Source of the DNA: Gossypium raimondii
Taxonomy: Eukaryota > Streptophyta > Magnoliopsida > Malvales > Malvaceae
Assembly: GCF_025698545.1 (NCBI RefSeq)
Contig: NC_068569.1
Span: 12,462,001-12,526,000 of the forward strand
Reading direction: 5' to 3'
Length of the DNA: 64,000 nucleotides
Within the stretch, counting starts at the first letter, position 1; each line of letters opens with the position of its first letter. This document shows, in pieces, positions 1,574-26,111 of this stretch. Under the pieces are notes generated by a model. The model searched no databases and was not told the DNA's origin. It saw nothing but the letters and a program-made list of their open reading frames with translations. A program made the position numbers and the translations under genes.

Positions 1574-2737
1574 TAAGGGTGAGCATTCGATCGAATCGAA
1601 TCGAATCGAATAAAAAATTTTCGAGTTAATCAAGTTTTCGAATCTCATTTTATCATCCTAACTTTATTTGAAGTTTTCTCGAATCGAGTCAAGTGAGATG
1701 GAATTCGAATCGAATCGAATATATTTGTTCGAGTTAAATTTTAAAAAATAATTTTGGGTCATTGTACCCATCATAATAAAATTTGTCCACCTTAATCAAA
1801 ATTTTTATTAACTTTCATCACCTCATAATTTATTTATTAATTTTTATATATTGGTTAACTTCTTTGCTTACTTAGTTGTTTCAATTATCTTGATTCTTGT
1901 CACTATGTATTTTGGAATTAAAAATATATTAAATGTAAAAATATGATTTTTTAATAAAAGTTATTTTGAAAATAAAATGTGAAATTGATACCAATATAAA
2001 ATTTTAACACGAATATTTTATGGCATAATTAATAATTCAATTTTAATATAAATATTCAATATGACTAAACAATTCAATAATATAAATAATATAAAATGTG
2101 AAATTTAATTTAATAATATAAATAGTAGATATAAATAAAATTATTACTATTTATGTTTAGTGATTTTTTTTTTGGATAATTTTGATTTTTTATTTGAGAG
2201 TAAAGGGTGAGAAGTAAAAGTTTAGGGGGAAAATAAAAAGTTTTGGGAAATAAAAGTTTGAGGGAAAGTAAATAGGGGGAGTAAAATTTTGGAGGGAAAA
2301 TATTTAAAAAAAATTGGATGGGGGGAGGGTTTGGGGTAGATGAGAGGTGGGATGGGAAAGGAAAAAAAGTTTTAGGGGAAAAGTGGGAGGGAGTAAAAAT
2401 TTTGAGGGAAAATAAAGGTTTTGAGAGTTTTTGGGAGTAAAATTTTGAGAAAAAGTAAATGAGAGAGTAAAATTTTGGTGGGAAATAGATTTTGAGTAGA
2501 TTGGGGGGTTGGGAGGGGAGGAGAGTAAAAGTTTTGAGGGGGAAAGTGGGAAGGAGTAAAAGTTTTGAGGGAATATTATAGTTTGATATTCGAATTATTC
2601 GAATTCGAAAACTTAAGTCGATTCGAACTCGAAATTTAAAAAAAAATTCGAGTTGATTCGAATAACTCGAATAACTCAATTCGTTTAACTCGAAATTCGA
2701 ATTTTTTTCGAGTCGAATCGAGTTTTGCTCACCCCTA
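1574..2737. mobile_element. Non-autonomous hAT-type element (1.16 kb)
   Basis: The ends are inverted: the left begins TAAGGGTGAGCATTCGATCG and the right ends GTTTTGCTCACCCCTA, both running inward into TCGAATCGA-rich sequence. An identical 8-bp direct repeat, ATTTCAAT, flanks it at 1566-1573 and 2738-2745. An 8-bp duplication with TA-GGG termini is the mark of hAT transposons. There is no transposase. The interior at about 2160-2580 is a purine-rich run of GGGAGTAAAA-like words that gives a meaningless 189-codon frame on the minus strand. A 431-bp relative with the same ends lies at 31.5 kb. Confidence 0.85.
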
Positions 2738-2918
2738 ATTTCAATGGTTTTTTTCTTAAATCTTTATTGGAGAATATATTTTAAAAGAAAGAGAGAGGAG
2801 AAAAGGCATGGGATATATATGAATTTTATTTAAGGAATAATATACTTTTTATCCATGGCTTCATATTTACACATTTCGAGGTAACTTTCACCTTTTACGA
2901 TTCCACTCATATCGAATT

Positions 2919-3066
2919 GTATATACGCATACAAATAAGTAAACATTTTAATTGTGGAAGCAAAGCAAAATTTATCATGCAAGAGTTGGGGCGATAAGGA
3001 ATAATCTAATCTAACGGAAAAGTTAGTTCGAACTTGGGATATGCTTGCAGCATTAATTAATAAATA
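2919..3066 (+). promoter_or_regulatory. Putative PHR1-responsive promoter of MIR399 unit 1
   Basis: Two matches to the PHR1 site GNATATNC are present: GTATATAC at 2919-2926 and GGATATGC at 3037-3044. A weak TATA-like AATAAATA follows at about 3058-3065. A start near 3090 would place the hairpin just inside the transcript, matching the geometry of the other four units. The TATA box is the weakest of the five. Confidence 0.5.
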
Positions 3067-3109
3067 AGAAGCCTCATGCAGGGAGTTCATTTGTCTTCAA
3101 GTTTCAGCT

Positions 3110-3226
3110 GCGGTTGCATTACAGGGCAAAATCTCCTCTGGCAGCCAGCCATTGCCACTTCACCTATGAATTCTAGCTAGTGTGCTCTCTGCCAATGGAG
3201 ATTTGCCCCGCAATTCCACTGCAACA
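3110..3226 (+). ncRNA. MIR399: MIR399 precursor 1 (divergent mature sequence)
   Basis: Hairpin whose 5' arm (3122-3143) and 3' arm (3190-3210) are complementary miR399-type sequences; the stem extends outward through GTTGCA/TGCAAC. On the plus strand the mature product would be the 3'-arm 21-mer starting TGCCAATGGAGATTTGCCCC, which differs from miR399d at position 7 (A to T). The plus strand is chosen because the PHR1-type sites lie upstream on that side, and because the arm flanks ('ATTACAGGGCAA' before the star, 'GCAATTCCACT' after the mature) match the other four precursors in their deduced orientation. miR399 directs cleavage of PHO2/UBC24 mRNA during phosphate starvation. The position-7 change lies in the seed, so this copy may be weak, decaying or altered in target range. 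Confidence 0.72.
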
Positions 3227-4480
3227 TTCACTGTTTTAACCTAAAGCTATACTTCCTTTCGGACCCAGCAGGATATTTTGTGTTTCCAGTTTCATGAGGT
3301 AGGAGTCAACTAAAGTTGTCATAAAATATTAGGAATTATTATTGCTGCATTTAGTATTACAACCCAGCTTTTCTTAAACAACTTTTTGGTGTTTTAAAAA
3401 TATAAAAGAGCATAATTTTATAAATCTTTAGTTTATAATAATCTTGGTTTCATTTGGGCTTATCATCATGGTAACTATCTTGGAATTAAAAGAAAAACAA
3501 TAGTTTCATTGTAAGGTTTTTTCTTTTGTAATTTATTTATTATCTTTTAAGTTCATTCCATCGATATTATATCTTTAATTCAAATTTAAATCCTTTTAAT
3601 AAATTTTATCTACTAACTAAACTAGGTACTACGATTTGTTGACACTAATAAACCCCTCGTCACAATCCCAATTAGTTACTTGGTTTATACTTTTTGTTAT
3701 CTACTATAGATTTTAATGGTTGCAATTTATCTAGAGCTATCCATGTTTTCTAAATACTTTGGTGTATGTATTATATGAGATTTGTCAATGTAATTGTGTC
3801 GCTCAATCTATTAAGAATCATTCTCGAAGGGTTTTATTGTGATAGATTATAGCGATGATGATAGATCCGAGATATGAGGAGAGAGATAAGTCATCTGAAA
3901 CTTGGCCTTTTGTGCATCACTAATGCAATGGGTCTTTTGAGACTTTTAACAGTTATTTTTTGGTTGATTAAGGTTCACCATCAAGTTGATTTGATGATAG
4001 CGAGGCAAATTTCAACGATTTGATTAAGTTGCTGCCTCTCTTATTTGTTTTTCAATTATTCCAGTGTTGTAGATATTGTCAATTTATCTTTCTCTTTTTC
4101 TAGATTATTTTGCAAACATAGCATTTGAGCATTAATTTATAGTAATTTATTTGTCATTTATATTATGTACCATATCTTTATATTATTATTATTATTGTTA
4201 TTCATAGTTTCTATTAATAATAGTATTATATATATTTTAATTGACAATTAAAAATTAAAAAAATCATAACAAGACATTAATTTATTGATTTTATCATAAC
4301 ATTAAACCAACAATAATTAATAATTAAATAAATTCATCTTCCAATTTTATAGCACTTCAAGAACTCTTATTGCACTTAATTAATAATTCTTAATTTAATT
4401 AAGTAATATTCAAATGAAATTGTCATCAAAGAAACATTAAAGAATAGTTTAAGTGATGATAAGATGATTTTATGATATTT
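3227..4480. other. Intergenic, nothing recognised
   Basis: AT-rich DNA without a supported gene, tRNA or clear repeat boundary. Confidence 0.4.
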
Positions 4481-4484
4481 ACAG

Positions 4485-5905
4485 CGCGTTTCGTTGGCAT
4501 GAATGACTATTCCATTCATACACTATTCCACTGTTTGGTTTAACTGAATGAGTGAAATGGTCGGGTAGATTATTGCCTCATTTCGACCTCTCACGGAATA
4601 CTCATTCCGTGTTACAACCAAAGAATAGTCATTCCAACCTTTCACCGAATAGCCACCAATTTTTTTCCCCAAAAATACCTCAAACCAAAAACATCATATT
4701 AACCACAATTTCAATTTATGAATTATAGTTATGGAAGAAAAATCAAGAAGAAACAAAAATTGAAACCCAAATGTTACGATTAAATGCTTTCTCAACTTCA
4801 ATTTCATCTAACAATGTTGTTTTCACAGCATCAAAACAAGGTCTTCTCTACTCTGACATGTTCCAAACCCAGTAATGAAATTTAGAAAACAAAACAAAAC
4901 AACCCAAATCAAAAAAAAAAATTGTGATGGACAATAAGAGATTAACAGAGGGGAGATTTGCATGTATAGATCTATAGGTTTTGGTAGGTGGAGATAAAGC
5001 TTTGGAGAGGAAGATACTTGAGAAAAAGAGAGGATCAAAGGAAAAAAAGAAGAAGAGAGAACTAGATAGAACTCTAGAGAAAAGAAAGAGATAAAGTCTG
5101 TAGAAAGCTGTAATGGTTTTAAGTTCAGTTGGATTGTGAATATGAGGACAATTAGGGTCCCTGGTTTTATTTATTATTGCTTTTGTTTTTCTTTATTATA
5201 ATCTTTATTATTTTTATTTTCGATAAGGTTGTTCTTTTGCTGTTATGTTTTGTTTGGCTGTATTTTTTCCCACTTTATATTAAATAAATTGAGTTGGTTA
5301 TATTCAAAAGAAAAATATAAAATAAAATAATTTTAAATATGATTTTTAGATTTATTTTAAATTTACAAAATTAAATTTATTTTTAAATAATGTTTTATTA
5401 TTAAATATAAAATGCTAAATTATTTATTTTCAAATATTATTTTTGACATAATATTTATAAATTTATTAAAAATAAATCATATTTTTATAAATCATATATT
5501 AATTATACTATTAGATATATTTATAATATATGTTACTAATTATTAGCATTTAATTATAATATTAAAATTTCTAGATAATATTTTTCTTATTTTTATAAAT
5601 TATATTAATTAAATTAAATTTATATGAACATTTAACAATAATTGAATAATCAAAATACTATTATTAAATCATATTTAATCATTATTATATTAAAATATTA
5701 TTAAATTATATTTAATAATAATCATCTACTTAAAAAATTATTAAGGGTACTCCGGTCATTTCAACTTTTTCTCTAATACTATTACAACATCTATTCCATT
5801 CAACCAAATATAAGAACACTATTACAACTCTATTCCATTCCGTTCAACTAAACAATTGAATTACTGATTATAGCTCTATTCTATTACAACCAACCAAACG
5901 TTTTA
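4485..5905. mobile_element. Probable TIR transposon, non-autonomous, unclassified
   Basis: The left end (GCGTTTCGTTGGCATGAATG...) and the right end read in reverse (ACGTTTGGTTGGTTGTAATA...) are imperfect inverted repeats. Both continue inward with further related words such as CTATTCCATTC and GTTTGGTT/GTTTAGTT. Ends beginning GCGTTTGGTTGG are common in plant PIF/Harbinger- and hAT-type MITEs. I could not define a convincing target duplication, so the limits are approximate. Small frames inside (for example 4823-5038) are not genes. Confidence 0.5.
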
Positions 5906-7384
5906 TTTTTATTCAAATTATTTTTTACATTTTATGGAGCCAAAATTAAGTTATGATATTTAGTGATGTTGTGATAAAATTCAAATATCATAAACAATTT
6001 TACGAATAAGAATCAACGTTGGTGGAAGATTATAATGAGAATGATAAATAAAAGAAAAGGAAAAATCAAAATCAAAGATGATGGTAAGAAATAGATGCTA
6101 GAGAAAGAGACGAAGATAAAAATATTTAAATATTAATGTAATGGTGTATGTTTTACTAATTTTATATGTGATTTTTAAATAAAACAGGTAAAAATAAAAT
6201 AATTACAAATTAAAGTTGAGCTTAAAAAACTTTACCACTCTATTAAACAAATTATTTTATAAATATTAATTTTTCTAATGATTTGATAAATAAACCCAGG
6301 CGTACATTTAAAAATAAAAACTAGTCAAAAAGGTTGCTGCTTTCTCTTCTCTTTCTTCATGTCATTAAATCATGGTGGATATAATTTCTTTTAATATTTA
6401 AAATATTAGTAGGAAAATAATGTGTCGGGGTTGAAAAATGGTATCTTAAAGGGAGCATATGCATGTGTACGGCGAATGAAGAAGCATAAAATCATTTAAA
6501 AAATATGCCATCGAGTTTTCGCATAGTGACAAGAAATGTATCCATATATTATGAAATACAGAGTCCATTTCGCAGCCCTTGGCGATCTTGAAAGCCAAAA
6601 TTAATAAATGAATAGACCAACATAATGACAACATATATGCTTTGGTATCTTCCATTAAAGAAAAAAGGCTCTTTGTCTTTGCATGTTATCATCATGTTTT
6701 CCGTTGATCCGCAACATCACCTTTAAATTGATTCTCCCTTCTACTTACACTTGAGCTGGCATGAGAAAGTGCAAGATCAAATATATGGAAAAGATAAAAT
6801 TGTAGGATGCTATCACCGTTCATTTTTTCTTTTTACCTTTAATTAGGATTCTAATTTTATCCAGAAAGTTAGATATAAATCATATTCTACACGTTATATT
6901 ATATAACTAGTTAGCTGTAATAAAAACCTAAAATTATAACCTGACCCTCTCAAAGATTTATAATAAAATTTTGGTCCTAAAAAAATTCTGGTTTAGTCCC
7001 TGCTATGAGGCTATATGCATGCATGCATGCATGCATCTATATTCTTATCAGGTCGATTTTTTGTTTCCGTTGCACTTGTCAGCCAGTTTCTTAGAAAGAT
7101 GGGGTATTTTGTACACTAAAAAATTTGGGAAAAAATACATAGATCTCAGCATTCAACAGATTAGAAGGATTCAGAACTAAAGCATTGGTGATAATGGATA
7201 GCTTCATAAGCCTCGGAGGAGAAAGATATACGACAACTTCATTGAAGAATAAAGTTTAAAACATACTTTTACAATGGTTGGTGGTTTGACATCTGCAAAC
7301 AAGCAAGCAAATCGATTGAACAAGTAAGAAAAATCAAGTAATGTTAGCATCAATGTCAAGAAAGAAAGTTGGACATATATATGA
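5906..7384. other. Intergenic, includes a (GCAT)n run
   Basis: No gene recognised. A short GCAT tandem run lies at about 7017-7036. An isolated GCATATGC (PHR1-type site) occurs at 6455-6462 with no recognisable MIR399 hairpin beside it. Confidence 0.4.
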
Positions 7385-7512
7385 TAGAGTAGTTGAATAG
7401 CAGGGCAATTCTCCTTTGGCGGATGATTGCACTACATTTTTTTCTATTGCAAAGTGTGCAATGTGCACTATTTCATCTGCCAAAGGAGAATTGCACCGTT
7501 ATTCTTCTCTAC
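7385..7512 (-). ncRNA. MIR399: MIR399 precursor 2
   Basis: Hairpin with arms at 7401-7421 and 7478-7498. Read on the minus strand, the star begins GTGCAATTCTCCTTTGGCAG, a form seen in known miR399-5p species. The mature 3'-arm 21-mer begins CGCCAAAGGAGAATTGCCCT, differing from canonical miR399 only at its first base. The minus orientation is supported by a TATA box (7575-7581) and a GNATATNC site (7608-7615) on the high-coordinate side, and by conserved arm flanks. Expected role: phosphate-starvation-induced silencing of PHO2/UBC24. The plus strand would also fold, but its 3'-arm product has two changes near the 3' end. Confidence 0.85.
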
Positions 7513-7574
7513 CCTTAGGACGTCCTTGATGGTCACAGCTGTGCTTGCGTTTTGCTTGGTCGAGTCGAATTTCG

Positions 7575-7615
7575 ATTTATATTTCTGCATTATTCGCATT
7601 TCGATATGGATATGC
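7575..7615 (-). promoter_or_regulatory. Promoter of MIR399 unit 2: TATA box and PHR1 site
   Basis: On the minus strand TATAAAT lies at 7581-7575, with the PHR1-type site GCATATCC (GGATATGC on plus) 26 bp further upstream at 7608-7615. The block resembles unit 5's promoter (both carry ATTCGCA and ATGGATATGC at the same spacing), which indicates duplication of promoter and hairpin together. Predicted start is about 7545. Confidence 0.7.
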
Positions 7616-8169
7616 GATGGAACTGAACTGGTATATGCTGAGGTCCATTCCTATACAAAAGCTTGCTTCTCGCTATTGCCATCATGGTCCCCTTCATCAG
7701 TCTCCTTTCAACAGCCTTTTTCTTTTTCCAGAACTTGATTGTGCTCTACAAATTAATTTTATATCTGTAAGCATTGTTCTGAATATATTTACATTGTGAA
7801 ACAATCAAAATTAAGTCAGACAGTTTAGAAATTGATATACTCTTGCTCGTGGTTTTAGTAGGCTAAACAACTGTTAGTTTTCCAATGCAAAAGAAACTGA
7901 ATATAATTGTACATCCTTAATGGATGCTTTTCCTTGACTTGTTCTTTCAATGAAATATACAGCCTTTGTAAAAGCAAAGGCCACATGTATTGTTGGACCA
8001 CATCTAAGGAATGCTTTAGGGTCATATCTAGCTAGATCTCTGTATCCCTCTGTGATGTTATAAGAATGACAAGATCATTACAAGAGATGTTGTTTGTAGA
8101 TATTGCTAGATTCTTTAGATGATGCTTCCCTTCTAAGCCAGTTTCTATCTTTCTGTTCCTTGCATGTAA

Positions 8170-8262
8170 ATGAAATATATAACGGAAGGGTGCATTAAGG
8201 CATAAGACCATAGTTGTCGATGGATTAGGCATCTGCTAGAGGAGATTCTCGCCGTTACAACT
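8170..8262 (-). pseudogene. Decayed MIR399 copy
   Basis: The plus-strand segment at 8230-8257 (starts CATCTGCTAGAGGAGATTCT, ends CGCCGTTA) matches the corresponding arm of precursor 2 (7475-7502) at about 22 of 28 positions. A degraded partner arm may be the AGGGTGCATTAAGGCATA stretch near 8185-8202. The mature portion is too altered to yield miR399, and no PHR1-type site with a good TATA box is seen next to it. I read this as the relic of a sixth unit. Confidence 0.5.
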
Positions 8263-8849
8263 GTAACTCTTTTGTTTATTCCGTGCTCTTATGCAGTCTT
8301 TACTGATATTTTTATCATTTGCACTCTGTCCCTTCGCAACTTGTCAAAGGGCGGCTTTTTCTTTTTCAAGAGCCTAAGAGGAGGGATTTGAAGTCTTCAA
8401 TGTGAACATAAATTCAAGCAGATTTCTTATATTACACGAAAATGGAACTTAGTACAATTATATCTGACATTGCATTTTCTGCTGAATCCATGACAGGAGA
8501 AACGCTTCTTCTAAGCATAGGATTAAATTCAGAAATTTGTTTAGCCTAGATGAAAAAGGCAATTATTATAGCACTCTGGTAGATTAAGAATTCCCAAGTA
8601 TTGCCTACTTGCATCTCTATATTAATAACATTAATTGCTTAGCTGCAGGCACATTAACTAAAGCAGTGAAACAAGCAAGAAAACAAAGCCTTCCATGTCG
8701 TTTTGATCAATAATATTGTCAGTATTGGTTTAGTGAAATAAATCTACCTTAATCCTAATAGAACTAAAACTGCATTCATATTCTTGTTTTAGTGCAAACA
8801 AGCTATGATGAAACGATAGTACTGATTTAGGACAAGGAAATCATTGTAA

Positions 8850-8962
8850 TCATTGTGTGAGTGAATGGCAGGGCAAATCTCCTTTGGCAAAATCGAATTA
8901 TGCAAAGAAAAGCACATCCATTTTTGCTTAAGGAGAGTTGCCCTGTAATTCCTCAACTCCAC
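8850..8962 (-). ncRNA. MIR399: MIR399 precursor 3 (identical to Arabidopsis miR399a)
   Basis: Hairpin with arms at 8869-8889 and 8925-8945 and a loop of only about 35 nt. On the minus strand the 3'-arm product begins TGCCAAAGGAGATTTGCCCT and ends in G, which is the Arabidopsis miR399a sequence as I know it. The star arm (GGGCAACTCTCCTTAAGCAA) carries mismatches, as expected for a star. The 5' flank GAATTACAGGGCAA matches precursors 1 and 4. The upstream side (higher coordinates) carries a TATA box and two PHR1-type sites. The plus strand would give a product with two changes near the seed, so minus is preferred. Confidence 0.9.
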
Positions 8963-9029
8963 ATCTATCTTGCTTCCAGCATCTGATATAAGTTGTTTGG
9001 CTGACTGTAAAGAGAGATTCAAGATCATT

Positions 9030-9127
9030 ATTTATAGTGCTCAAACCCATCTGCTTTCTTTAAGGAAATAGACGATACTTGTCGAGTAAAATATTTTGGA
9101 TATGCCAAAGAAAGAAATGGCATATGC
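9030..9127 (-). promoter_or_regulatory. Promoter of MIR399 unit 3: TATA box and two PHR1 sites
   Basis: On the minus strand TATAAAT is at 9036-9030. GNATATNC matches are at 9098-9105 (GGATATGC) and 9120-9127 (GCATATGC). Predicted start is about 9000, shortly before the hairpin. Two PHR1-type sites 22 bp apart suggest the strongest phosphate response in the cluster, which is an inference. Confidence 0.7.
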
Positions 9128-10118
9128 CAAGTCAAAGTTTTAAAGGTTCCCCATTTCAATCATGGGATAGTGGTCCAAAATCTTGTGTATCTGCTTTCTC
9201 TTGAAAAAGTGATGCCCTTCCCCCAAAGTATTTGTAGCAATTTTCACAATTAACAAAGCAGTTGATCACTTTGCTTCTTTAAAGATTTAATGAAAAAGGA
9301 GGTAGCCATAGCTATCTGTCAAAGACAAGTACACGACAAACATGGGTATATCAAATAAAACAATTACAAATATTTAAATGTCAAACAGGCTAGTCAATGC
9401 CTTGCATTAAGAAAACTTCTATCCATTAAAATTGTTTATTCATCTTCCAACACTTTTAGGGTTCCAAATTTATTTATTTATTATCAGTTATATCAGTTGT
9501 CTGCGAACATGAGAACGGTTATATATTAAGGAATATTGTATGAGCATATCAGAGGTGGATGCTTATATGCCAATGGAAAAAAAAAAGGTCGACATATGCG
9601 TAACATGCATGAGCACACGTAAAAACATGCAAACATCAAAAGAAAATGTTGCTTTACTCTCTCCTAAACACACGAAACACTATAGATCACATAGGCAGGA
9701 GGACATGCCACTGGATCTTCCTTCTCCATGCTTGACGATATTTCCTTTTCTCCTGTAACTTTTTTTCTGAATGGTACCTAAACATTATTGAGACAAAAAG
9801 GAAGCACCGATATTCGATACTTTCCTTTACCGTAAATCTGATTTCCTACAACTTGTTTTGACCCTTAGAGGAGTGAAGGGGCCTTAAACTGAAGGACAAC
9901 ATATATTAGCCAGGAATGTTGTTGACGTACGTAACACTCTTGTAACGTTTTGTACCATTTTGATAGCCTTTAATATGAAGTCATAAAGAACCTTGTTACA
10001 ATATCTTCCTTTCAGTGTCCCTTTAGTCTTATAGGGTTCAAAGGATTTATTATTTCTTAAAGCATTGCCTAATGGGTACAGCTATCCTACAAAAGAAGGG
10101 GTCAAGTGTATAAGCTAA

Positions 10119-10172
10119 GAATATGCTATTGCAAGGACAGGGAAATGCCAGACTTTTCACTGGCCTATAAAT
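10119..10172 (+). promoter_or_regulatory. Promoter of MIR399 unit 4: PHR1 site and TATA box
   Basis: GAATATGC (GNATATNC) is at 10119-10126 and TATAAAT at 10166-10172, both upstream of hairpin 4 on the plus strand. Predicted start is about 10197, some 40 nt before the stem. Confidence 0.7.
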
Positions 10173-10229
10173 GAAGATTGAGTTTTTGGAAGTGTTCATC
10201 AGCTCAAAATTGTACTTTCAGGTACCGGG

Positions 10230-10366
10230 TACAGATGCATTACTGGGCAACTCAGCTTTGGCAGTATGTTACTCAAGGCTGCTCATAGGTCGTCGGCTTA
10301 TGAGACGGTAATCAGTGGTAATCTTATTGCCAAAGGAGATTTGCCCAGCGCTTCAGCTGTACATTC
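10230..10366 (+). ncRNA. MIR399: MIR399 precursor 4
   Basis: Hairpin with arms at 10243-10263 and 10328-10348. The plus-strand 3' arm begins TGCCAAAGGAGATTTGCCCA, an intact miR399 core that differs from miR399a only at position 20. The star is GGGCAACTCAGCTTTGGCAG, which has central mismatches. The flank GCATTACTGGGCAA before the star matches precursor 1. The longer loop contains a secondary stem. TATA and PHR1-type elements lie on the plus-strand upstream side. Expected role as for the other units: PHO2/UBC24 silencing under phosphate limitation. Confidence 0.88.
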
Positions 10367-10424
10367 TTCAGTCTACTTAATGTGCATAAATTCATGTTAC
10401 TACATCCTAAACTCAGAAAGAATG

Positions 10425-10480
10425 ATATCTAGCATTATACTATAATCCTTTTATATCTAGCATTATACTATAATCCTTTT
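10425..10480. repeat. 28-bp tandem duplication
   Basis: The unit ATATCTAGCATTATACTATA plus AATCCTTT occurs twice in direct succession with period 28 (10425 and 10453), just downstream of MIR399 precursor 4. The two copies are identical, so the duplication is recent. Confidence 0.85.
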
Positions 10481-10843
10481 ACTCCATTCTATATCTCAGT
10501 ATGCATTGACATGTTCAACAAGGTTCCTATTTCTGAAAAAGGTTACTATTACTACTTTTTGACTAGTTTGCAAGTATTAATTAATGTTCTGAGAGAAAGA
10601 TTTATATCTAAAGGGGGGAAAGAGAAAGTAAGCCAATTTATTTAATTAAACTAATGCCCAAATTACTAATGTTCAGTTATTCACATGCTGAACAGTGATG
10701 ATCCTGGTGATTATCTACATGGGATAGCGAAGAGTAATCCAGGAAATATGTAGGTGTCCGTGGGAAGTCAGGTTTTTCCATGTCTATGGTGAAGCCAATA
10801 GAGCAGCAGATTTCATGTCAAGATGGTTTTCTGAAGTAGAATT

Positions 10844-10990
10844 TGATCTACACATCTACGATAATCCATCTCAAGGAATTACTAGTGTTTTGCTAAGTGA
10901 CTCCGCTGATATTACTTTTGGAAGGAATTGCTTGCTGTACTAGTCTGGAGTAGACATTGATCTACACATCTATGGTAATCCATCTCTCTA
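10844..10990. repeat. Spaced direct repeat (~30 bp, two copies)
   Basis: TGATCTACACATCTA followed by YG(A/G)TAATCCATCTC occurs at about 10846-10875 and again at 10959-10988, roughly 113 bp apart and nearly identical. It does not belong to a recognised element. Confidence 0.7.
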
Positions 10991-12149
10991 GGCTACTTTA
11001 TTTACCCCCAAAAAAAGAACTAATGCCCAAATTTTATGTTTCTTACGGGTTCTCAACACCAAAAATGAAGCCCAACGTTCAACTGCTAAACAATAACTTG
11101 ACATGCTTTCAAAGAGAATGTCAAATATCACAGGGAAAATGTCTGTAACACATTAACTTATCTGGAATCTTCATAGTACATATATGGTTAAATGTAGACA
11201 AATATCATATTGGTTTCAAGTGGTTTAAAACCTAAATTCATTGGCCTATTTTCACCACTAGGTCCTAGCTAGCTCCTGGAAGACAGTCAACTGACCATGA
11301 AGAAAACATAAGACAGAAATCAATCATTGCTTGGCATGGTTATCAACTCTTGTCCAATTAATGAACTTTAATTACATTATACCTGCATCTGATAAAAAGA
11401 TAGAGTTTGTTCAAAAAAATAAAAAGATAGCGTAAAGGAAAAGCTTGTGGCAGAAGGGGAAAACTATTGAGCAGTTTCTTCTCTTTTTATTTCCTTTGGT
11501 CGATAAACAGAACCAGTTCCCTGTTCAGCTGATACAGTGAACTGATTGCCAACTGCCAAGCACAAATAACATACATAGTCTTTCCCTATCTTAAAACAGA
11601 CTTAAAACTGGAGAAATTGGCATTGATTCACCTATGGAGGGATTCTTGATGCAGCTGGCATCTCTAAGATGGAAAGGGTAATCCTAGGAACAATTAACTT
11701 AGTGTTGAACAGTATATGGGTTGTGGAGGGTGATGAACACACCAAATGCTTGAGCTGTAACTAATCAGCGATGACTCTCCTGGATCAGAAGAATCTAGAG
11801 ATGATAGTCTGATGATGAAGCAACGTTAACATCATGCTGAGAGTTCCATTGAGCCTGATGATGTTTAGAGAAGTGGTGAAATGACAAGATTCATTCTCAT
11901 ACTTCCTTCGGCTTCTAACCATATCAGCATTCATATTTTGTTTAAACCCTCAGTTCCTTGCCTTGGAAATTTGTCAAACTGATAATAGCTGCTGCATGCA
12001 AACATTAGTTGAAAAACAGATTAAATTGTGACAAAGAGGAGAGGTATTAAGACTAACCAATATCCTAAGCTGCTCCTATAGTATTTGCCTACCATTTCAA
12101 GGAAAGGAGCAAGCAATAATGGAGAAGTGTAGCATATATAAATATGGTA

Positions 12150-12262
12150 ACTGCAGGAGTGAATGGCAGGGCAATTCTCCTTTGGCAAAGCCAGAAGTTT
12201 TAAGTAAGCCATGTTCTTCTCTGTGCCAAAGAAGGACTGCACTGTTATTTCACAACTGCACA
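12150..12262 (-). ncRNA. MIR399: MIR399 precursor 5
   Basis: Hairpin with arms at 12167-12187 and 12224-12244. On the minus strand the star begins GTGCAGTCCTTCTTTGGCAC, a known style of miR399-5p. The mature 3'-arm product begins TGCCAAAGGAGAATTGCCCT and ends in G, a canonical plant miR399. The downstream flank GCCATTCACTC is shared with precursor 3, and AATAACAGTGCA with precursor 2. A TATA box and PHR1-type site lie upstream at 12306-12346. The plus strand would give a poor miR399, so minus is preferred. Confidence 0.9.
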
Positions 12263-12305
12263 TACGTGTTAGCTGGTCATCTAAGCAGAGCAATTGAAGA
12301 GACCT

Positions 12306-12346
12306 CTTTATACCACATAATTATTCGCACCTGAACATGGATATGC
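12306..12346 (-). promoter_or_regulatory. Promoter of MIR399 unit 5: TATA box and PHR1 site
   Basis: On the minus strand TATAAAG is at 12312-12306 and the PHR1-type site GCATATCC (GGATATGC on plus) at 12346-12339, 26 bp upstream of the TATA box. Spacing and flanking words equal those of unit 2. Predicted start is about 12275. Confidence 0.7.
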
Positions 12347-13106
12347 TGTAAGAATTCATATTTTGGGGTTCCTTTTATGTTAATGGAGTTATGGTCCCCG
12401 TTATCTTTTAACAATTGATTTTAGAATTGGGCTAGCATTCACCCCCATCAAATAAGAGCATTACATGGCATTTTCGGGGCCAAAACATTTGCTACAACAA
12501 AGCCAGGAAATGAATGTTTGCATTTGTAACCATAGTAGGTACAAGTTTGTTGTTTCTTCGCCTTCAGTTTCCTTCTAGGATCACTTGTATAGATAGAACC
12601 ATATATTAAGCACAATTTGCGTCACTGCTTTTAACTTATGGAGTTCTATAAAGATTTCCAAAATCCTGAAAACATATATTTTATGATGAGTTTGAATACG
12701 ACACGAAAATAAAACATATTTAATAAACACGAAATTAAAATGATAAATCTAGTATGATTGTTTAGACACAATATTGACGCCACACCTATAAAAACACATT
12801 TTAAAATTATAAATTACTAAAGATATTAATTTTAAATGAATCGATTTTTCAATAAGTATTAAATTTAAATTATAAAATTTGTTTGTTATACTTTTAAAAT
12901 TAAGTACAAGATTTTTATAAATTTAATTTTAAAATTTTAAAAGTAAAACATTTAAAAGATAGTGTTAAAAGAAATAAAATACAAAAAATTGAAATTAGTT
13001 AATAACATGAGCAAAAATCTTATTTCAATATCTTAATAATAGAATAAAATAATTTCATTTAAATTTAATCATAAAAATAAACAAAATATTAATATAAAAC
13101 AATTTT

Positions 13107-13636
13107 GGGTAAGCTACACTTATAATCACCCAACTATTGCTAAGTTTGCTTTTTAGTCACTCAATAATGAAAAGTTACAAAATAGTCATCCAACTATTTG
13201 ATTGTCTTTTTTGGTAGCTGTTAAATGACTAATGGAAGATGACGTGACAGCTTTTGAAATTGCCATAACAACAACTTTAACCTTCAATATTTATACATTT
13301 TGTAATTTGGTCTCTTTTTTTTCTTTTTCTTTTTTAGTTTTGCTTTTCTTTTTCATCTTCTCATTCTTTAAAATTGACCTACAATGTCACAATGAAAAAG
13401 AAGATTGTAAAAAAGACCAAATTACACAATGTGTAAATGTTGAGGATTAATTTTTTTAGAATCAAGATTAAATTGACACAATGTATGAATCTTGAAGGTT
13501 AAAATTGCTCAAGTAGTTATCTTTCGGTAGGTGAGCAGAAAAAGAGAATAGTTAGACAACTATTTTGTAACTTTTCATAATTGAATGAGTAAAAAAATTA
13601 CTAACATTTGAGTGGCTACCATCCTGAATTTGGAGG
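13107..13636. mobile_element. Mutator-type MITE (530 bp)
   Basis: The left end GGGTAAGCTACACTTATAAT... and the reverse complement of the right end share a long imperfect inverted repeat, including ATGAAAAGTTACAAAATAGT on both sides (about 100 bp in all). A 9-bp direct repeat, AACAATTTT, flanks it at 13098-13106 and 13637-13645, the length expected of Mutator-like elements. No transposase. The 13232-13450 frame inside is T-rich noise. Confidence 0.8.
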
Positions 13637-17396: not shown

Positions 17397-18140
17397 ATGG
17401 AGTCGGATGGAATTATCAGCCTCTTTGATTCGTGTTGGTTTGAGATGGAAATATTCAAAAAACAGACAACTCCATCAACATCTACGGTTTCGGAACCAAA
17501 CCAAGATCTCCGAGCTGAAGAAACATCATCAAAACCAGAGTTTACACGCACCCCATCTCTCCATACAAGGTCCATGAGCGACCAGTTGAGCTTAAACAGC
17601 ACAAGCTTCATAGGTTCAGCTTCGTTGTCGCCCGACTCGGTTCTCCACTCACCAAAGCTGCATAAAATCATCTCGGGCAAAGAAATGACGGAAGAAGAGT
17701 TGCAAGATAACGGGAGTAGAATCCAAGAAGAACCCAAAAAGAAGGAGACAGCAGCAAGCAACAGGAGAAGTAGTAGAAGGAAAAAGGGTACAAGCAAGAG
17801 CTTGTCAGACTTGGAATTTGAGGAGCTAAAAGGGTTTATGGATCTGGGGTTTGTATTCTCAGAGGAAGATAACAAGGATTCAAGGTTGGTTGAAATAATC
17901 CCTGGCTTGCAAAGATTGGGAAGGAAAGATGGTGAAGAAGAGAATAAAGAAGCTGCAGGTGCTGAAGATGATGATAGGGATGAAGTTTCAAGGCCTTACC
18001 TATCAGAAGCATGGCATGTTTCAGAAAGAAGAAAGGAAAACCCTTTGATGAATTGGAGAGTCCCTGCTTTGGGTAACGAGGTTGACGTCAAAGACAGCCT
18101 TAGATGGTGGGCTCATACTGTTGCCTCTACTGTTAAATGA
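17397..18140 (+). CDS. DUF1685 family protein
   Basis: Intronless frame of 247 residues if read from the ATG at 17397 (MESDGIISLFDSCWFEMEIF). An in-frame ATG at 17361 would add 12 residues; the later one is preferred because DUF1685 proteins usually start close to this acidic leader. Diagnostic blocks are SLSDLEFEELKGFMDLGF (about residues 135-152), IIPGLQRLG, RPYLSEAW (about 199-206), NWRVPA and the C-terminal DVKDSLRWWAHTVASTV. A basic stretch RRSSRRKKG precedes the first block and may be a nuclear signal. No signal peptide or membrane segment. The family is plant-specific and has no established biochemical role. The long minus-strand frame over it (17312-17875) is a shadow. Confidence 0.85.
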   Translation: MESDGIISLFDSCWFEMEIFKKQTTPSTSTVSEPNQDLRAEETSSKPEFTRTPSLHTRSMSDQLSLNSTSFIGSASLSPDSVLHSPKLHKIISGKEMTEEELQDNGSRIQEEPKKKETAASNRRSSRRKKGTSKSLSDLEFEELKGFMDLGFVFSEEDNKDSRLVEIIPGLQRLGRKDGEEENKEAAGAEDDDRDEVSRPYLSEAWHVSERRKENPLMNWRVPALGNEVDVKDSLRWWAHTVASTVK

Positions 18141-24821: not shown

Positions 24822-26111
24822 ATGAAACAACCTCCGCCATTGTTCTTCCTCCTCATTCTTCTCTCCGCCACCATCGCCTCCGCCGCTACAACGCCCACGG
24901 TCTCCCCTACTCCTTCCCCCACATCCTCCCCGACCCCACCCACCACCAAAGCACCATCATCTTCCTCATCTCCTCTAGACCCTGAACAAATGAAAACACT
25001 TCGGTCCCTCCACATCCCTACCACAAGAGACCCTTGCATTCAACCTTCCCCTCGCAACGCCACCATCTGCGACAACTCTAAGCCCTTGCGCCACCTCATT
25101 TCCCTCCACCTCTCCAACTGTTCATCCGACCTTTTCCTCTCCTCCGCAGCTCTCAAGTCCCTCTCTTCCCTCCGTTCTCTCTCCTTCACCGACTGCCAGG
25201 TATCCCCTGTCCGCTTCCCTTCCCAGCTCTCTCTTTCCCTCACTTCCTTCTCCTGCATTCGATCCCTCCGGCGTCTCTCTGGGGTCTGGCTCTCGCGTTT
25301 CGTTAACCTCACTGATCTCACAGTTTCCTACACTCCGGTTAAGGCCAGCGGTCTTTATGTAATCCTTGGCCACATGCATCAGCTGAAGACACTCACCATT
25401 TCTCATGCTAATCTTTCTGGTTCTCTTCCAAGGCACTTGAATCCGGATCTGACCCACGTTGATTTATCTGATAACAAGCTTAAAGGAAAGATACCAACTT
25501 CTCTTACGCTTCTTGAAGATCTTAAATTCTTGAATCTTTCTTCAAACGGGCTAGATGGGGAGATTCCCACTGAGCTTGGTAACTTGATATCCTTAAAGAA
25601 TCTGTCATTGGCTTCCAATTCGTTCTCTGGGTCGATCCCAAGTTCCTTTTCAGCTATTCCAGGCTTGATTCATGTCGATCTGAGCAACAACCAGTTAAAC
25701 GGAAGTGTTCCAAAGTTTTTGTCAGAGCTGAAAGGGTTGAAAGTGTTGAATCTGGAGAACAATCAGTTCAATGGGGTTTTACCTTTCAATGCTAGCTTCA
25801 TAAAGCGGTTGGCTGTTTTCAAGGTTGGTGGGAATAGCAATTTGTGTTACAATCGTTCTGTTTTGTCATCAAAACTGAAGCTTGGGGTTGCTCGTTGCGA
25901 TAAGAATGGATTTCCGATTGTAGCGCCGTCTCCGAAGGAGTCTTCTGCAGATAGTGAGAGTGATTATGGTGATGATGATGCAGTTGATACAAGTAATAAG
26001 AAGGAGAAGCATCACGGGCCAAGTAAGGTTGTACTTGGTTTTGCAATTGGTATTTCTTCAATCGTTTTCCTTATTATTTTCTTGGTTCTGATCGCAAAAT
26101 GCTGTCGTTGA
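24822..26111 (+). CDS. RLP51: LRR receptor-like protein, RLP51/RLP55 type
   Basis: Intronless, 429 residues. A signal peptide (about 1-21) is followed by a Thr/Ser/Pro-rich stretch (22-50), an LRR N-terminal region, and about nine extracellular leucine-rich repeats. The most regular are [39 protein letters not shown] and [19 protein letters not shown]. Next come an acidic juxtamembrane region (ESDYGDDD), one TM helix (about 403-425) and a tail of only a few residues (AKCCR). With no kinase domain it must signal through a partner kinase. In Arabidopsis RLP51 (SNC2, At4g18760) contributes to basal immunity and lies beside CESA8 as here; RLP55 is its duplicate. The RLP51 assignment rests on architecture and gene order. 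The start is the first ATG, directly giving a good signal peptide. Confidence 0.85.

What the first reader, a model, noticed from the sequence alone, without database searches (positions are those of the whole stretch)
3110..12346. Five-member MIR399 cluster in mixed orientation, each unit with its own PHR1-type site
Seen: five hairpins with miR399-type arms at 3.15, 7.45, 8.9, 10.3 and 12.2 kb. With strands +,-,-,+,- every unit has one or two GNATATNC sites upstream, four have a TATAAA(T/G) box, and the predicted start falls 20-60 nt before the stem. The deduced strands also align the flanks (A-T-A-A-C-x-G-x-G-C-A before the star, GC(C/A)ATTC after the mature). Known: PHR1 activates miR399 through P1BS, and miR399 silences PHO2. 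Inference: this is a phosphate-starvation locus built by duplication and inversion of a compact promoter-plus-hairpin unit of about 300 bp. It makes at least four different mature sequences.
Basis: partly seen in the sequence, partly recalled or inferred. Interest (0 to 1): 0.85.

Follow-up and report, generated by a model that had tools for sequence, protein, structure and literature searches.

The report
Cluster of six miR399 phosphate-starvation genes
This looks like a cluster of plant microRNA genes of the known miR399 family, which turn down a brake on phosphate uptake when phosphate is scarce; each gene appears to carry its own small phosphate-starvation promoter, and the arrangement is old rather than strange.

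Summary
Five MIR399 hairpins lie at 3.1, 7.4, 8.9, 10.2 and 12.2 kb on strands +,-,-,+,-. Each has one or two P1BS (GNATATNC) sites 153-271 nt before its mature arm; four have a sense TATAAA box. In 1000 dinucleotide shuffles at most 3 of 5 units had such a site. Read on the opposite strands, 0 of 6 units have a P1BS and 1 of 6 a TATAAA. A sixth unit lies 1.4 kb left of the window.

Two more MIR399 clusters, on C6 and C10, lie on the same side of paralogues of a neighbouring LRR gene (dS 0.41-0.54), so the cluster seems older than a large-scale duplication. C5 and C10 share the mixed orientation; in C6 one hairpin type is flipped. Genome-wide, 16 of 17 units have an upstream P1BS, 1 of 17 a downstream one. 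Two PHO2-like genes with miR399 sites and IPS1-type decoy sites are present.

Best reading: an ordinary but well-expanded MIR399 locus of separately promoted genes that silence PHO2 under phosphate starvation. Clustered MIR399 genes are known in Arabidopsis, rice and barley. Expression could not be tested. Novelty: new member of a known kind.

The parts
3112..3220 (+). U1 MIR399 hairpin; mature 21-mer 3190-3210 TGCCAATGGAGATTTGCCCCG
   Evidence: Rfam 68.2 bits; fold z -4.4, 0 of 200 shuffles
2919..2926 (.). U1 distal P1BS GTATATAC
3037..3044 (.). U1 proximal P1BS GGATATGC
3058..3067 (+). U1 diverged TATA-like element TAATAAATAA (TATAAATAA in relative C10_a)
   Evidence: alignment; homology 3060-3228 to C10:2799130-2799321; letters checked
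7391..7508 (-). U2 MIR399 hairpin; mature 7401-7421 CGCCAAAGGAGAATTGCCCTG; near-palindromic, also scores on +
   Evidence: Rfam 74.8 (-) and 71.0 (+) bits; fold z -9.1 (-) and -9.6 (+)
7576..7581 (-). U2 TATAAA box
7608..7615 (.). U2 proximal P1BS
7631..7638 (.). U2 distal P1BS
8859..8955 (-). U3 MIR399 hairpin; mature 8869-8889 TGCCAAAGGAGATTTGCCCTG (same letters as ghr-miR399d printed in PMC11945813)
   Evidence: Rfam 55.0 bits, E 7e-11; fold z -8.5
9031..9036 (-). U3 TATAAA box
9098..9105 (.). U3 proximal P1BS; lies in 9085-9159, 84% identical to C6
9120..9127 (.). U3 distal P1BS, in the same conserved block
10233..10358 (+). U4 MIR399 hairpin; mature 10328-10348 TGCCAAAGGAGATTTGCCCAG
   Evidence: Rfam 52.5 bits, E 4e-10; fold z -5.1
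10166..10171 (+). U4 TATAAA box
10119..10126 (.). U4 P1BS GAATATGC
12157..12255 (-). U5 MIR399 hairpin; mature 12167-12187 TGCCAAAGGAGAATTGCCCTG
   Evidence: Rfam 52.0 bits, E 5e-10; fold z -4.1
12307..12312 (-). U5 TATAAA box
12339..12346 (.). U5 P1BS; 12307-12346 is 73% identical to U2's 7576-7615, TATA to P1BS in register
   Evidence: repeat D7

Best explanation
The region holds five genes of a six-gene MIR399 cluster. Each gene is a compact, separately promoted unit: a P1BS 67-185 nt before the hairpin and, in five of six units, a TATAAA box between the two. PHR1-type factors would switch the units on when phosphate is low; each short transcript is cut by the usual plant miRNA machinery into a 21-nt miR399 from the 3' arm, and these miRNAs silence PHO2-like genes while IPS1-type transcripts buffer them. 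The mixed orientation rules out one shared transcript for all units. The cluster grew by duplication of promoter-plus-hairpin units, at least partly before a large-scale duplication that left sister clusters on C6 and C10. Shown: hairpins, motifs, positions, sister clusters, complementary sites. Inferred: transcription, PHR1 binding, processing, silencing, and the history.
For: Rfam MIR399 matches at all six units; folding. Upstream P1BS in 5 of 5 window units, maximum 3 in 1000 shuffles. Mirror test: on the opposite strands 0 of 6 units have a P1BS and 1 of 6 a TATAAA in the same intervals, against 6 of 6 and 5 of 6 on the assigned strands. Genome-wide 16 of 17 units have an upstream P1BS, 1 of 17 a downstream one; sense TATAAA in 10 of 17, antisense TATAAA in the same interval in 0 of 17. 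U2 and U5 promoters alike over 40 nt with TATA and P1BS in register. The LRR neighbour at 24822-26111 has two close paralogues (684 and 654 bits; next best 96), on C10 about 24 kb and on C6 about 200 kb from the MIR399 units there, on the same side; the DUF1685 neighbour's best paralogue is on C6 about 82 kb away; dS 0.41-0.61 over four comparisons and two methods. Hairpins and a P1BS block conserved between clusters. Two PHO2-like genes carry three miR399-complementary sites each; U0, U3 and U4 score 0.5-2.5 at the best four sites. IPS1-type sites at four places with 0-1 mismatch.
Against: Three of five window hairpins fall short of Rfam's curated cut-off. U1 lacks a canonical TATAAA. Fold energy is lower on the unassigned strand for U0, U1, U2 and, by 0.7 kcal/mol, U5, and Rfam scores U3 slightly higher on + (55.6 against 55.0), so strand rests on promoters and mature-arm letters. 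U4's opposite strand also has a TATAAA. Units are related by descent, so shared P1BS sites are not independent events. U1 and U2 fit PHO2 sites less well (best score 3.5 each). The C6 paralogues are 82-200 kb from the C6 units, so that synteny is loose. No expression data.
Confidence: 0.92

Rival explanations
1. Some neighbouring units in the same orientation (U0-U1, or U2-U3) are processed from one long shared transcript, as in MIR395 clusters, and the internal P1BS/TATA sites are secondary.
For: U2 and U3 are both on - and about 1.35 kb apart; MIR395 clusters in rice are described as polycistronic (PMC2773440, passages).
Against: Strands +,+,-,-,+,- exclude one transcript for all six; each of the six keeps its own upstream P1BS, and five of six a TATAAA.
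Confidence: 0.1
2. The strands are wrong or both are used for some units, above all U2, so that sense and antisense precursors both yield miR399-like RNAs.
For: U2 passes the MIR399 gathering score on both strands; opposite-strand folds are more stable for U0, U1, U2 and slightly U5.
Against: On the opposite strands 0 of 6 units have a P1BS and 1 of 6 (U4) a TATAAA in the same intervals; the assigned 3' arms are closer to the canonical letters for U1, U3, U4 and U5 (U2 ties).
Confidence: 0.06
3. The hairpins are decayed inverted repeats or MITE-like elements giving 24-nt siRNA rather than working miRNA genes.
For: One related unit, C6_a, has no P1BS or TATAAA in the stretches tested; many AT-rich repeats lie nearby.
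Against: Canonical mature letters, upstream motifs, and hairpins conserved against sister clusters whose neighbouring genes differ by dS about 0.4-0.6.
Confidence: 0.02

Closest known systems
MIR399 family, PHR1-miR399-PHO2 pathway (Rfam RF00445)
   Same: Hairpin, 3'-arm mature letters, upstream GNATATNC sites, complementary sites in PHO2-like genes, IPS1-type decoy sites in the genome.
   Different: Nothing fundamental seen; six different 21-mers from one locus, one of them (U1) with a changed position 7.
Clustered MIR399 genes in Arabidopsis and rice (PMC2358906, passages) and barley (PMC3878733, passages)
   Same: Closely spaced paralogous MIR399 genes; barley pairs lie about 2000 nt apart.
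   Different: Six members here in mixed orientation with a promoter-like stretch each; the two barley clusters are pairs in the same orientation. PMC2358906 (2008) says it is unknown whether the closely spaced genes share a transcript.
MIR395 clusters (maize and rice, PMC2773440, passages)
   Same: A nutrient-stress miRNA family in local clusters.
   Different: In the table rows I saw, maize MIR395 genes are 48-107 nt apart and on one strand per cluster, and rice clusters are described as polycistronic; here the gaps are 1.3-4.5 kb and both strands are used.

Membership tests
MIR399 | Match to the Rfam MIR399 model | tested here: met
   U1 and U2 over the gathering score; U3, U4 and U5 2.0 to 5.0 bits under it on the assigned strand, at E 5.3e-10 or better; U0 over it at 58.9
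MIR399 | miR399 letters in the 3' arm, paired with a star arm in a stable stem | tested here: met
   18-19 of 21 mature bases paired in all six; 0 of 200 shuffles fold as well
MIR399 | P1BS (PHR1 site) in the promoter | tested here: met
   6 of 6 units of this cluster, 16 of 17 in the genome; binding itself not testable
MIR399 | Complementary sites upstream of a PHO2 coding region | tested here: met
   Three sites each in L007 and L011 at score 5 or less, upstream of PHO2-like reading frames; that they lie in the mRNA's 5' UTR is inferred
MIR399 | Precise 21-nt reads, induced by low phosphate | not testable with these tools
   No reads or expression data available
Polycistronic miRNA cluster (all units in one transcript) | All units on one strand | tested here: not met
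   Strands +,+,-,-,+,-

The most novel reading that the evidence does not exclude
The cluster is a set of separately promoted, unequal miR399 genes kept apart by selection: the six different 21-mers differ in how well they fit PHO2 sites, and the position-7 variant shared by U1 and its sister C10_a has been kept since the large-scale duplication, giving a graded or partly different silencing output.
Probability: 0.12. Interest if true: 0.5.

Novelty: new member of a known kind. Interest (0 to 1): 0.28.

Why it matters
It gives a clear map of a MIR399 locus in which orientation alone rules out a single shared transcript for all members, and sister clusters let promoter and hairpin evolution be compared after a large-scale duplication. 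It is useful for annotating phosphate-response genes, but it does not change how the pathway is understood.

Tried and rejected
A possible decayed unit at 8234-8252 (5 mismatches): its local alignment scores against the 17 units (11 to 16) were exceeded by the best of 100 shuffles in 17 of 17 cases, and nhmmer with four profiles over 84 kb did not list it at E up to 5; rejected. Below E 1 that nhmmer scan listed only the six units (on both strands); a few weak hits at E 1.1-2.8 were taken as chance.

A dedicated target of the U1 variant: of 14 places at up to one mismatch to TGCCAATGGAGATTTGYCC, the only exact one is U1 itself; no dedicated target seen at that sensitivity.

Fold z-scores used a poorly mixing shuffle of my own and were dropped in favour. 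The tree of 17 units is mostly unresolved (1 of 14 inner branches strongly supported), so the pairing of units between clusters rests on pairwise scores and flanks, and I do not claim which orientation is ancestral; no outgroup plant genome was on hand.

Literature: ten searches; of the papers listed I saw passages of eleven, none whole. Nothing I saw describes this locus; the library holds open-licence papers only, and Bari 2006 and a diploid-cotton miRNA paper (identifier recalled) were not held.

Full report
What is there. The window is C5:12462001-12526000 of a 751-Mb genome in 281 contigs. Rfam's MIR399 model matches at U1 3112-3220 (+), U2 7391-7508 (-), U3 8859-8955 (-), U4 10233-10358 (+) and U5 12157-12255 (-) (10 matches for 5 hairpins, because each matches on both strands). 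U1 and U2 pass the gathering score of 57; U3, U4 and U5 fall 2.0 to 5.0 bits short on the assigned strand, with E 5.3e-10 or better. A genome-wide search gave 28 matches at 16 places, including a sixth cluster member, U0, at C5:12460499-12460628 (+), 1.4 kb left of the window. An nhmmer scan of 84 kb around the cluster listed only these six below E 1.

Folding and strand. All six fold better than every one of 200 shuffles on both strands (z -3.5 to -9.6). Fold energy does not choose the strand: it is lower on the unassigned strand for U0, U1, U2 and, by 0.7 kcal/mol, U5. Strand rests on the mature-arm letters, which are closer to canonical on the assigned strand for U1, U3, U4 and U5 (U2 ties), and on the promoters.

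Promoters. All five window units have one or two GNATATNC sites 153-271 nt before the mature arm, 8 of the window's 17 sites; 1000 shuffles of 2601-13200 gave a mean of 0.28 units and at most 3. TATAAA is found in sense in U2, U3, U4, U5 and U0, 51-75 nt before the hairpin for the four in the window. Read on the opposite strands, 0 of 6 units have a P1BS and 1 of 6 (U4) a TATAAA in the same intervals. Across 17 units in the genome (16 places plus C6_a), 16 have a P1BS in the upstream stretch and 1 in an equal downstream stretch; sense TATAAA occurs in 10, antisense TATAAA in the same interval in none. With a looser downstream stretch 2 of 17 have a P1BS. The one unit without an upstream P1BS, C6_a, looks decayed. 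Units share ancestry, so the binomial p-values printed overstate the case. U2 and U5 match at 73% over 40 nt spanning TATA and P1BS in register, which supports duplication of promoter and hairpin together. U1's TATA is diverged (alignment).

Age and arrangement. The LRR gene at 24822-26111, about 12.6 kb from U5, has two close paralogues, at C10:2829302 (+), about 24 kb from the nearest MIR399 unit there, and C6:43951827 (-), about 200 kb from the nearest (684 and 654 bits, next best 96). The DUF1685 gene at 17397-18140 has its best paralogue at C6:44070551 (-), about 82 kb away; none was listed near the C10 cluster. dS is 0.41-0.54 for the three LRR pairs and 0.59-0.61 for DUF1685. Read in the LRR-gene direction, the unit orders are C5 + + - - + -, C10 + - +, C6 + + + +. 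By pairwise score U3 goes with C10_b, C6_a and C6_b; U0 with C6_c and C6_d; U1 with C10_a; U4 and C10_c pair weakly. So mixed orientation is shared by C5 and C10, and the U3 type is flipped in C6. The tree is mostly unresolved (1 of 14 inner branches strong). Hairpins and a 75-bp P1BS block are conserved across clusters.

Targets. Two PHO2-like genes are present: P0001 from L007 matches the UBE2O tandem-SH3 domain and is 72% identical to the L011 frame, which matches solved UBE2O chains. Each has three miR399-complementary sites upstream of its reading frame. At their best site U0, U3 and U4 score 0.5, U5 2.5, and U1 and U2 3.5. IPS1-type sites occur at three places exactly and one with a mismatch (three more places at 2 mismatches).

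Known background. GNATATNC as the PHR1 site and PHR1-dependent induction of the six Arabidopsis miR399 genes are stated in PMC4378627 (passages); PHO2 and IPS1 roles in PMC7941915 and PMC12011862 (passages). Closely spaced MIR399 genes in Arabidopsis and rice are stated in PMC2358906 (passages), and barley pairs in PMC3878733 (passages). U3's 21-mer equals ghr-miR399d and C10_c's equals ghr-miR399e as printed in PMC11945813 (passages).

Verdict. A well-formed MIR399 cluster with separately promoted units by sequence; ordinary in kind, old in origin, slightly larger than reported. Transcription, PHR binding and silencing are inferred.

Noticed in passing
C5:12460499-12460628 (L010 8499-8628), left of the window: A sixth MIR399 unit with its own P1BS and TATAAA belongs to the same cluster.
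   Followed up: yes
window 9581-9888: A block with no coding sign looked for, 73% identical to C10:2801488-2801815 and partly alike to C6:44172970-44173083 (76% over 114 bases), as well conserved as the hairpins; a genome search listed only C5 and C10. Function unknown; perhaps a distal element of the U3-type unit.
   Followed up: partly
window 7391-7508: U2 is a near-palindrome that passes the MIR399 cut-off on both strands.
   Followed up: partly
L001 and L002 (C3:5.95 and 6.06 Mb): Two copies, 91% identical over 508 bp, hold an exact miR399-like 19-mer beside what by eye looks like a small membrane-protein frame; not listed by the MIR399 model.
   Followed up: partly
window 3190-3210 and L029: U1 and C10_a share a changed base at position 7 of the mature arm; no exact dedicated target found.
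   Followed up: partly
window 17397-52452: Neighbouring genes by Pfam: DUF1685, cellulose synthase, LRR, a kinase with NAF domain, DOG1 domain; two of the seven window frames tested had no family.
   Followed up: partly
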